From positions 21,780-85,779 of the IMG/VR virus record IMGVR_UViG_3300047356_000838: a DNA stretch of 64,000 nucleotides; one strand, 5' to 3'. Source of the DNA: a virus. A program made the translations under genes and the position numbers. The first letter of the stretch is position 1; the number at the start of each line of letters is the position of its first letter. Of the stretch, positions 49,350 to 54,428 are shown one piece after another. The notes below the pieces were generated by a model. That model was not told where the DNA came from and made no database searches. It worked only from the letters and a program-made list of their open reading frames with translations.

Positions 49350-50467
49350 TGAAATATAATATATGGAACAAGTGGGATCCACTTAAAGTGTGCATGCTGG
49401 GCAATCATTATGCACCTGAATTCTTTAACGGCTGCGATACAAAAGCAAGCGATCCTCTAAAACGTATATGCGAAGAAACACTGGAAGATCTTGACGGATT
49501 TAAAACTATACTACAACAATTTGGTGTACAAGTTATACAACCTGAACTAGATCCTAATGAACGTTTTTTGGATAACCCACATAGGTACCCTAGAGGACCT
49601 TTGCAGCCGCGTGATGCACAACTTGTTTTAGGAAATGATTGTTACATAACAGGCAATGATCATCCATCAATTGCTAAGAAGTTAGACGAGTATAGTACTA
49701 CAAAAAACTTAAAAGAACAAATGTTCTATACTAGAGAAAACTATGAAGTTTTTGCTGGTGAAGATTATCCGCCCTATGAAGAGTACAGGGCTAATTTTCA
49801 GAATAAGGATTTTTTCCCTGACTTTGTTTGGGAAGAGTTGCAGACTGATACACCAGCATTAATATCTAGTGCAACTGCTTTTATGATAGGAACTAAACTT
49901 TATCTTGGTGATGATAACATGGAACAACTTATGGATGTTGTTTCAGAATTTATGCCTGCAATTAACCACTTTGATACCACAATAGTAAAAATGATCGGAC
50001 ACAGTGACGGCAATTTTCATCCAATTAAACCTGGCGCTATACTTAGTTTACACAATGTACAAACATACAGCGAAACATTTCCTGGTTGGGATGTGTGTTA
50101 TTTGCCTGATGAGAGTTGGGAAAAAATTGAAGGTTTTTGGAAACTTAAACAGAAAAATCAAGGCAAGTGGTGGCTTGCAGGTGAAGAAGATAATACTGAG
50201 TTTACACACTTTGTTGAAACTTGGTTAAGTGACTGGGTTGGATATGTAGAGGAGACAGTATTTGACGTTAACGTTCTTATGCTCGATGCTAATCATTGTT
50301 GTGTTAGTAATCCTAACAACGAACAGGTAAATGCATTTTTTAAGAAACACAAAGTAGAAGCAGTGTATGTGCCATGGAGACATAGGTATTTTTGGGATGG
50401 GGGATTGCATTGTATAACACTGGACCTTTACCGAGAAGGCACACAAAAAGACTATTTTAATCCTTGA
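49349..50467 (+). CDS. Amidinotransferase A
   Basis: 372 residues. The arrangement PRDAQLVLGN, KMIGHSDGNFHPIKPG (histidine of the catalytic set), NTEFTHFVETWLSDWVGY, FDVNVLMLD and the final GGLHCITLDLYREG with Cys355 matches the glycine amidinotransferase (AGAT)-like fold, in which a cysteine takes the amidino group from arginine and passes it to an amine. The length fits the family. It follows gp55 with a one-base overlap and precedes gp47. A paralogue lies on the other side of gp47. Donor and acceptor are not readable; arginine deimination is also possible. Confidence 0.8.
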   Translation: MKYNIWNKWDPLKVCMLGNHYAPEFFNGCDTKASDPLKRICEETLEDLDGFKTILQQFGVQVIQPELDPNERFLDNPHRYPRGPLQPRDAQLVLGNDCYITGNDHPSIAKKLDEYSTTKNLKEQMFYTRENYEVFAGEDYPPYEEYRANFQNKDFFPDFVWEELQTDTPALISSATAFMIGTKLYLGDDNMEQLMDVVSEFMPAINHFDTTIVKMIGHSDGNFHPIKPGAILSLHNVQTYSETFPGWDVCYLPDESWEKIEGFWKLKQKNQGKWWLAGEEDNTEFTHFVETWLSDWVGYVEETVFDVNVLMLDANHCCVSNPNNEQVNAFFKKHKVEAVYVPWRHRYFWDGGLHCITLDLYREGTQKDYFNP

Positions 50468-50491
50468 CAATAACACATAAGGTGCTATAAT
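50464..50491 (+). promoter_or_regulatory. Sigma70 promoter placing +1 at the gp47 ATG
   Basis: TTGACA at 50464-50469, a 16-base spacer and TATAAT at 50486-50491. Only six bases separate the -10 box from the gp47 ATG at 50498, so the expected start base is the A of the ATG. The TTGACA overlaps the stop codon of the upstream gene. Confidence 0.7.
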
Positions 50492-50497
50492 ACTAGT

Positions 50498-51508
50498 ATG
50501 AGTTTGTTCAAACGGGCCGCCGTATTCACGGATATTCACTTTGGCAACAAGAGTAATAGCCAAACGTTTAACCGCGACTGTCTCGATTTCGTAACTTGGT
50601 TTTGTAGTGAAGCCAAAGCGCAGGGTGCTGACACTTGTATCTTTATGGGCGACTGGCATCATCAACGTGCCAGTATCAATGTTGCTACACTAAACTATAG
50701 TTTGCAAGCATTGGAACTGTTAAACACAGCGTTTGATGTTATACACTTTATACCTGGCAATCACGATGAATACTACAGAGATAAACGCGACTTCAACAGT
50801 ATTGCATTTATAAACAAATTTGAGAACATACAATTACACAATGAAATTACTACTATAGATGGTGTAGCATTTATCCCGTGGTTAGTAGGTGATGAACACA
50901 AACAAATGCAGAAAATAACTGCTGACTATGTAATTGGACATTTTGAACTTCCTCACTTTTATATGAACGCTATGGTACAAATGCCAGATCACGGTGAACT
51001 AAGCAGCAATGACTTTGGTCGTTGTGGTACTGTGTTTACAGGACATTTTCACAAGCGACAGGAACGAGGCAATGTTGTATACACAGGCAATGCATTTCCT
51101 CACAACTACAGCGATGCTGGCGATGATGATCGTGGACTGATGATACTAGACTGGGACGGCACAAGACAGTTTATTGCCTGGCCCGATCAACCCCGATATC
51201 GCACACTGAAAATAAGTCAACTACTGGAAGGCCCTGAAAAATACTTGGGTCCAAAGACCTATGCTCGTGTTAACTTGGATGTGGACATCAGTTATGAAGA
51301 AGCAAACTTTATCAAAGAAACTTTTATGGAGGAGTATCAACTGCGTGAAATGAGTTTGATCCCTGTAAAAGTTGAGGACATGGACATGCAAATTTCAGGT
51401 GAGATCAACTTTGAAAGTGTAGATACTATTGTTACTAGTCAACTACAACAGATTGATAGTCAACAGTACGATACTAACCTAATGTTGGATATCTACAGGA
51501 ATCTTTAA
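50498..51508 (+). CDS. gp47: Recombination nuclease subunit gp47 (SbcD/Mre11-like)
   Basis: 336 residues, the length of T4 gp47. The metallophosphoesterase motifs are in order: D12-x-H14 (TDIHFG), GDWHH near 51-55, GNHDE near 87-91, GHFELPH and GHFHKR. With gp46 it forms the Mre11/Rad50-type complex that resects DNA ends for recombination-dependent replication and host DNA degradation. The start is firm because the first motif begins by residue 12, yet there is no good ribosome-binding site and the promoter places the RNA 5' end on the ATG. It overlaps the second amidinotransferase start (TAATG). Confidence 0.94.
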   Translation: MSLFKRAAVFTDIHFGNKSNSQTFNRDCLDFVTWFCSEAKAQGADTCIFMGDWHHQRASINVATLNYSLQALELLNTAFDVIHFIPGNHDEYYRDKRDFNSIAFINKFENIQLHNEITTIDGVAFIPWLVGDEHKQMQKITADYVIGHFELPHFYMNAMVQMPDHGELSSNDFGRCGTVFTGHFHKRQERGNVVYTGNAFPHNYSDAGDDDRGLMILDWDGTRQFIAWPDQPRYRTLKISQLLEGPEKYLGPKTYARVNLDVDISYEEANFIKETFMEEYQLREMSLIPVKVEDMDMQISGEINFESVDTIVTSQLQQIDSQQYDTNLMLDIYRNL

Positions 51509-52644: not shown

Positions 52645-52658
52645 CTTTATAGTATAAT
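52630..52658 (+). promoter_or_regulatory. Sigma70-type promoter placing +1 at the gp46 ATG
   Basis: TTGCAT at 52630-52635, a 17-base spacer and TATAAT at 52653-52658. Six bases separate the -10 box from the gp46 ATG at 52665, putting the expected start on its A. No ribosome-binding site precedes the ATG. Confidence 0.68.
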
Positions 52659-52664
52659 AAACAC

Positions 52665-54428
52665 ATGTTCAAATTAGATACACTTACAGTAAAAAACTTT
52701 ATGAGCGTGGGTAATACCACACAGGCCATAGACTTTAACCGCAATGACCTTACACTAGTGCTAGGTGAAAACTTGGACACAGGCGGAGGCGATGCTGGCA
52801 GCAGAAACGGTACTGGTAAGACCACTATCATCAATGCGCTAAGTTATGCACTATATGGCAATGCACTCACAAACATTCGCAAAGATAACTTGATTAACAA
52901 GACTAACAGCAAAAATATGCTAGTAACCGTCGAATTTGAAAAAGATGGACTGAGTTATCGCATCGAACGTGGTCGTAAGCCCAATGTGCTAAAGTTCTAC
53001 ATCAACAACAGCGAACAAGAAACAGACGACAACGCACAGGGCGATAGCAGAGAAACACAAAAGGCTATCGAAGAACTGTTGGGTATGAGTCATGACATGT
53101 TCAAACATGTGCTTGCACTGAATACCTACAGTGAGCCGTTTTTGAGTATGCGCACCAACGATCAACGTGCTATCATTGAACAGTTGTTGGGTATTACTAT
53201 TCTCAGTGAAAAAGCAGAGAATCTCAAAGAGATGGTGCGTGTAACTAAGAACAAAATCCAAGAGGAAGAGTTCCGTATCAAAGCAGTTGAAGATGCTAAC
53301 GGCAAGATTGTAGAACAAGTTGATGCACTCAAACGCAGACAGCGTATGTGGCAAGAGAAAAAAGATCAGGACATTGCAAACTTTAAAACAGCAATCAATG
53401 ATCTAAGTCATGTTGACATTGATGCTGAACTTAGAGCGCACACTGAACTTGCAGACTGGAACACGCTAAACAATGCACAAGTGCAATTACAAAAGGATGT
53501 TGCAGCACTGCAGGCACAGGAAGGCAGAGCAGAGCGCGATGTTAAAAAAGCAAACAAAGCTCTAGTAGGATGGCAAGATGGAGTGTGTCATAGTTGCAAT
53601 CAAAGCATAGAACATTTGGACAGCCACAAACAAGAGATTGAAAAAGCGGAGAAGGAACATGACGAAGCAAATAATTTCCTTAGCGAGTTACAAACAGCAA
53701 TTACAGAGCTCAAAACTAAGCAAGAAACAGTCCCAAGCAAACCACGAACTTTCTATGATAGCGCCAATGATGCACACAACCATCGTTCAAGCCTATCCAC
53801 ACTGGAATCACAACTACAAAGTAAGCAAGATGAAAGTGACCCTTACACCGATCAAATAGCAGACATGGAAACTACTGCAGTGCAGGAAGTTACCTGGGAT
53901 ACAATCAACGAACTTACCCGTGTGCAGAATCATCAGGAGTTCTTGCTTAAACTTCTTACTAACAAAGACAGTTTTATCCGCAAGCGTATTATTGATCAGA
54001 ACCTTGCATACTTAAATACAAGACTAGAAGGATACCTGGGCGCAGTTGGACTACCACACACAGTGGTGTTCCAAAATGATCTAACAGTAGAAATACAAGA
54101 ACTGGGCAGAGACTTGGACTTTGACAACTTGAGCAGAGGTGAACGTAACAGACTTATACTTTCATTAAGTTGGGCGTTCCGTGATGTTTGGGAAAGCCTG
54201 TATCAACCAATCAACTTGTTGTTTATTGATGAACTAGTAGACAGTGGCATGGACAGTGCAGGTGTAGAAAACGCCATGGGTGTACTAAAGCGTATGAGCA
54301 GAGAGCGTAACAAAAGTGTATGGCTAGTAAGTCACAAAGACGAACTTATAGGGCGTGTGAACAATGTGCTAAAAGTTATCAAAGAAAATGGATTTACCAG
54401 TTATGATACTGATGTAGAACTAGTATGA
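52665..54428 (+). CDS. gp46: Recombination ATPase subunit gp46 (SbcC/Rad50-like)
   Basis: 587 residues. Walker A GSRNGTGKT at residues 45-53, a Q-loop-type NTYSEPF segment, paired coiled coils around a zinc-hook CHSC near 307-310, signature LSRGERNRL near 487 and Walker B LLFIDELVDSG near 515. This is the SMC-like ATPase partner of gp47. A Gly-rich insertion (NLDTGGGDAG) just before Walker A is as in marine T4-like relatives. Its mRNA appears leaderless. The last four bases overlap the next gene (ATGA). Confidence 0.94.
   Translation: MFKLDTLTVKNFMSVGNTTQAIDFNRNDLTLVLGENLDTGGGDAGSRNGTGKTTIINALSYALYGNALTNIRKDNLINKTNSKNMLVTVEFEKDGLSYRIERGRKPNVLKFYINNSEQETDDNAQGDSRETQKAIEELLGMSHDMFKHVLALNTYSEPFLSMRTNDQRAIIEQLLGITILSEKAENLKEMVRVTKNKIQEEEFRIKAVEDANGKIVEQVDALKRRQRMWQEKKDQDIANFKTAINDLSHVDIDAELRAHTELADWNTLNNAQVQLQKDVAALQAQEGRAERDVKKANKALVGWQDGVCHSCNQSIEHLDSHKQEIEKAEKEHDEANNFLSELQTAITELKTKQETVPSKPRTFYDSANDAHNHRSSLSTLESQLQSKQDESDPYTDQIADMETTAVQEVTWDTINELTRVQNHQEFLLKLLTNKDSFIRKRIIDQNLAYLNTRLEGYLGAVGLPHTVVFQNDLTVEIQELGRDLDFDNLSRGERNRLILSLSWAFRDVWESLYQPINLLFIDELVDSGMDSAGVENAMGVLKRMSRERNKSVWLVSHKDELIGRVNNVLKVIKENGFTSYDTDVELV

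What the first reader, a model, noticed from the sequence alone, without database searches (positions are those of the whole stretch)
50464..52667. Host-type promoters placed so that gp47 and gp46 mRNAs start at the ATG
At gp47 (TTGACA-16-TATAAT) and gp46 (TTGCAT-17-TATAAT) exactly six bases lie between the -10 box and the ATG, so the expected first RNA base is the A of the start codon. Neither ATG has a convincing ribosome-binding site, although other genes here do (for example AAGGAG at 58116-58121). The start codons are firm because conserved motifs begin within a few residues. This predicts leaderless translation of key early phage proteins, conceivably favouring translation under altered ribosome conditions.
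Basis: partly seen in the sequence, partly recalled or inferred. Interest (0 to 1): 0.72.

Follow-up and report, generated by a model that had tools for sequence, protein, structure and literature searches.

The report
Leaderless promoters of phage recombination genes
In this large uncultured phage the promoter of a DNA-repair nuclease gene sits so close to the start codon that its messenger RNA should begin with the start codon itself, and dozens of related phages show the same arrangement; leaderless messages are already known, but such a conserved, genome-wide phage set appears unreported.

Summary
gp47 has TTGACA-16-TATAAT-6-ATG at 50464-50500; gp46 has TATAAT-6-ATG with a weak -35. The leaderless reading is well supported for gp47 and plausible for gp46. 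In 15 distinct close loci the two boxes stay nearly fixed and the gap to ATG is always 6 bases, while the 6 bases themselves and the -35/-10 spacing vary. Among 88 distinct gp47 loci, 32 have the -10 at 5-8 bases from an ATG without Shine-Dalgarno (SD). About 30 others have the same kind of promoter 17-33 bases upstream, with SD. A separate set of 59 loci gave 35 more, 27 of them at exactly 6. Across four related phage records, promoter-to-start distances are bimodal: 16 genes at 5-7, none at 8-16, 43 at 17-45; shuffling predicts 0.045 at 5-7. So leaderless promoters are a real class here, not a quirk of two genes. No RNA 5' end was measured, and the idea of favoured translation on altered ribosomes has no support. 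The architecture matches known bacterial leaderless genes (PMC3160421).

The parts
50464..50469 (+). -35 element TTGACA of the gp47 promoter
   Evidence: sequence; invariant in 15 of 15 distinct close loci
50486..50491 (+). -10 element TATAAT of the gp47 promoter (preceded by TGC, an extended -10)
50492..50497 (+). 6-base gap between -10 and ATG; length fixed, bases variable
   Evidence: column identity 0.34-0.64, length 6 in 15 of 15
50498..51508 (+). gp47 (SbcD/Mre11-like calcineurin phosphoesterase), predicted mRNA start at its A
   Evidence: Pfam Metallophos 2.6e-07; promoter geometry
52630..52635 (+). weak -35 (TTGCAT, 3 of 6) of gp46
52653..52658 (+). -10 element TATAAT of gp46
52659..52664 (+). 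6-base gap between gp46 -10 and ATG
52665..54428 (+). gp46 (SbcC/Rad50-like ATPase), predicted leaderless
   Evidence: Pfam AAA_23 3e-13
51508..52644 (+). cargo gene lying between gp47 and gp46, unknown function (phrog_25854)
48537..49349 (+). late sigma factor (gp55-like) upstream; contrast case with TATAAT 27 bases from the start and AAGGA as SD
   Evidence: phrog_12791 1.9e-81
18301..18645 (-). third leaderless-type gene (114 aa, unknown): TTGACA 18681-18676, 17-base palindromic spacer, TATAAT 18658-18653, 7 bases, ATG at 18645
62370..64000 (+). portal protein gene (runs off the window) with TATAAT 62359-62364 five bases before ATG; relatives L209-L211 keep 5-6 bases

Best explanation
Host-type sigma-70 promoters are placed so that RNA polymerase starts at or within a base of the A of the ATG of gp47, and probably of gp46. 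The mRNA has no leader, and ribosomes recognise the 5'-terminal AUG instead of a Shine-Dalgarno site. This is one of two discrete promoter classes in this group of large phages; the other leaves a leader of at least about 10 bases that usually carries an SD. Shown: promoter boxes, fixed gap with varying bases, bimodal distances, exclusion between leaderless geometry and SD. Inferred: the transcription start, leaderless translation, and early timing. A plausible benefit is self-contained expression of gp47 and gp46 in a place where neighbouring cargo genes are often exchanged.
For: Gap fixed at 6 while its bases and the -35/-10 spacing vary. 32 of 88 distinct gp47 loci are leaderless-type, including relatives of 57-60% identity; a separate set of 59 loci gave 35 more, 27 at exactly 6. 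The label needs 6 changes on the gp47 tree and persists over deep branches. Pattern TTGA-N17-20-TATAMT-N4-9-ATG gives 13 and 11 sites in two ~350-kb relatives against 1 and 1 for the reversed control. Bimodal distances: 16 at 5-7, 0 at 8-16, 43 at 17-45; SD 0 of 16 against 32 of 43; shuffled expectation 0.045 at 5-7. gp46 of L011 is a natural contrast: aligned start ATT, promoter 25 bases up, AGGAG present.
Against: No 5' ends were measured. SD absence is partly mechanical. Start-codon preference (32 of 32 ATG against mostly TTG/GTG in leadered gp47) is confounded with clade, and genome-wide leadered genes are also mostly ATG (38 of 43). AUG accessibility in the predicted 5' end is ordinary. 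gp46 has a weak -35 and 5 of 15 close loci lack the leaderless geometry. Read-through from upstream genes could also supply gp47.
Confidence: 0.83

Rival explanations
1. The promoter is real but gp47 and gp46 are translated mainly from longer read-through mRNAs that start upstream (gp55 or cargo genes); the abutting promoter gives a minor transcript and its position reflects tight packing of genes.
For: Upstream genes mostly end 9-60 bases away; in other loci gp46 or gp47 overlaps the upstream gene and has no promoter at all.
Against: The gap stays at 6-7 whether the upstream stop is 9, 18, 30, 49 or 225 bases away; packing alone does not predict an empty 8-16 range.
Confidence: 0.12
2. Chance: AT-rich upstream DNA happened to give TATAAT at this distance in two genes.
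For: TATAAT is common in the window (about 60 sites).
Against: Shuffles give two or more such genes in 0.15% of trials; both boxes are conserved in relatives while flanking bases drift.
Confidence: 0.03
3. The true start codons are further downstream, so the mRNAs have short leaders.
For: None found.
Against: Conserved motifs begin within the first residues (gp47 TDIH at residues 11-14, gp46 LTVKNF at 7-12) and are kept at about 60% identity.
Confidence: 0.02

Closest known systems
Bacterial 'TA-led' leaderless genes (Zheng et al. 2011, PMC3160421)
   Same: -10-like TAnnnT about 12 bases upstream of the start (counted from the first T), no SD, i.e. a 6-base gap, as here
   Different: That survey covered cellular genomes; here a specific gene pair and a wider gene set in large uncultured phages
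Phage lambda cI leaderless mRNA (mentioned in PMC9031893; lambda also in PMC3160421)
   Same: Phage mRNA starting at the AUG of a protein gene
   Different: A temperate-phage repressor transcript; here recombination nuclease genes of T4-like large phages, conserved across many records
T4 genes 46 and 47
   Same: Same proteins, also with small genes between them
   Different: The whole T4 record has one match to the promoter pattern, at chance level
Pseudomonas phage PA5oct (among the nearest isolates, with Sinorhizobium phage Phosso and Agrobacterium phage Atu_ph07)
   Same: gp47 about 49% identical; PA5oct has TTGACA-17-TATAAT-7-ATG exactly at an annotated exonuclease start
   Different: Its gp47 follows the gp55-like gene directly, with a GTG start, AAGGA and no promoter of its own

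Membership tests
Leaderless (TA-led) genes | -10-like hexamer about 12 bases upstream of the start codon | tested here: met
Leaderless (TA-led) genes | no usable Shine-Dalgarno site | tested here: met
   0 of 16 genome-wide and 0 of 32 gp47 loci have one; partly mechanical
Leaderless (TA-led) genes | AUG start codon | tested here: met
   32 of 32 gp47, 15 of 16 genome-wide
Leaderless (TA-led) genes | mapped transcription start at the A of AUG | not testable with these tools
   no RNA data
Leaderless (TA-led) genes | translation from the 5'-terminal AUG | not testable with these tools
   needs a reporter or ribosome profiling
Sigma-70 type promoters | TTGACA and TATAAT 16-18 bases apart, gp47 | tested here: met
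   15 of 15 close loci
Sigma-70 type promoters | TTGACA and TATAAT 16-18 bases apart, gp46 | tested here: inconclusive
   -10 and spacing met, -35 only 3 of 6 in the window
T4-like gp46/gp47 (SbcCD) pair | Metallophos and AAA_23/SMC domains | tested here: met

The most novel reading that the evidence does not exclude
Large T4-like phages keep a dedicated set of leaderless genes, with gp47 as its most constant member, so that these proteins are made by a different initiation route from the phage's SD-led genes and can be favoured when initiation is altered during infection.
Probability: 0.15. Interest if true: 0.75.

Novelty: new member of a known kind. Interest (0 to 1): 0.47.

Why it matters
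Leaderless initiation in virulent-type phages is little documented. Here it is conserved, gene-specific and sits beside SD-led genes driven by the same promoter type, so the group is a natural comparison of the two modes. It also gives a simple rule for calling starts and promoters in such genomes, and a cultivable relative (PA5oct) with one candidate gene for testing.

Tried and rejected
Near-identical phage records: none. Host hint from genome contigs: no relative found, so the host stays unknown. AUG accessibility in the predicted 5' end: not unusual. Start-codon identity as independent evidence: confounded with clade. Four gp46 hits at 5-8 bases (L063, L073, L085, L087) were discounted because the hexamer is gp47 coding sequence and the genes overlap. 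The PA5oct exonuclease is not a homologue of the leaderless exonuclease of the 354-kb relative. Several other PA5oct pattern hits do not coincide with annotated starts.

Full report
The record. The window is bases 21780-85779 of an 85,779-base uncultured virus record. Its 48-56 kb part has no near match among phage records. gp47 and gp46 are most similar (about 49-50%) to those of large phages such as PA5oct and Phosso. The gene at 48537-49349 is a gp55-like late sigma factor.

Observation. Exact TATAAT six bases before ATG occurs three times in the whole record: at gp47, at gp46 and once inside a gene. Shuffled upstream regions give two or more genes with this placement in 0.15% of trials.

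Relatives of gp47. I collected gp47 loci and classified 88 distinct ones. In the window and its close relatives (82-94% identity; 15 distinct loci in all) TTGACA is invariant, TATAAT nearly so, and the gap to ATG is always 6. The six bases, the spacer sequence and its length (16-18) vary, and upstream genes differ. The same geometry, mostly as TATACT-N6/7-ATG, holds in relatives of 57-60% identity. A sister clade of about 50-53% identity has the same kind of promoter about 21-33 bases from the start, with SD and usually a TTG or GTG start. A third set overlaps or closely follows an upstream gene and has no promoter of its own. On the gp47 tree the leaderless label needs 6 changes. A separate set of loci fetched with a distant relative as query gave 59 distinct new loci, 35 of them leaderless-type, all ATG without SD, 27 at exactly 6. 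Some of these contigs overlap ones already seen; identical start regions were removed.

gp46. Ten of 15 close loci have a -10 at exactly 6 bases from ATG, with various upstream genes and usually a poor -35. The others are joined to an upstream gene or, in L011, have an aligned ATT start with a leadered promoter and AGGAG. The gp46 case is therefore plausible but weaker.

Genome-wide class. Scanning whole related records for TTGA-N17-20-TATAMT-N4-9-ATG gave 13 and 11 hits in two records of about 350 kb, against 1 and 1 for the reversed pattern. A gene-level analysis of four records, whole or in part, with 699 genes, found 16 promoter-to-start distances of 5-7, none of 8-16, and 43 of 17-45. SD sites occur in 0 of 16 and 32 of 43 respectively; shuffled upstream regions predict 0.045 cases at 5-7. 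Leaderless-type genes there include a DnaJ protein, a UvdE-like endonuclease, a Rv2179c-like exonuclease and a calcineurin-like phosphoesterase. The caveat is that the analysis used a simple ORF caller and took the nearest promoter to any of several candidate starts.

Mechanism. Sigma-70 polymerase normally starts about 6-8 bases after the -10 hexamer (established knowledge), so the A of ATG is the expected first base. Translation would then start at a 5'-terminal AUG, as reviewed in PMC9031893. These last steps are inferred. Searches of the held library found no report of this in this phage group, which is not proof of absence. The AR9 phage paper remarks that phage transcripts are often leaderless (PMC5312081).

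Known kind. The geometry equals the TA-like signal at about 12 bases upstream that marks leaderless bacterial genes (PMC3160421). What is added is strong conservation at one phage gene across deep divergence, a genome-wide two-class layout in the same phages, and a testable isolate, PA5oct, with TTGACA-17-TATAAT-7-ATG at an annotated exonuclease start.

Noticed in passing
window 18653-18681 (-): The -35/-10 spacer of the 114-aa gene is a palindrome ACAGGCGC-TTGG-GCGCCTGT; relatives keep it with TACG or TTCG loops and, in one record, a changed but still paired stem (ACAGGACC-TTCG-GGTCCTGT). It may be a terminator overlapping the promoter, or an operator.
   Followed up: partly
window 50498-50533 and 52665-52700: Synonymous conservation is raised in the first 12 codons of gp47 (0.85 against about 0.58) and gp46 (0.84 against about 0.6) among close relatives, also where gp46 is not leaderless; perhaps recombination joints or a regulatory site.
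   Followed up: no
window 62325-62370: The portal gene has both a late-type GGTAAATA motif and TATAAT five bases before its ATG; L209 has the same at 6 bases, L210 and L211 at 5.
   Followed up: partly
window 49349-50467 and 51508-52644: Two related genes of unknown function (phrog_25854) flank gp47; the stretch between gp47 and gp46 holds different cargo (0 to 2.4 kb) in different loci.
   Followed up: partly
L059, upstream of its gp46: L059 shares the window's sequence from the end of the cargo gene through the gp46 promoter although its gp46 is only 63% identical, suggesting recombination of the cargo-promoter unit.
   Followed up: no
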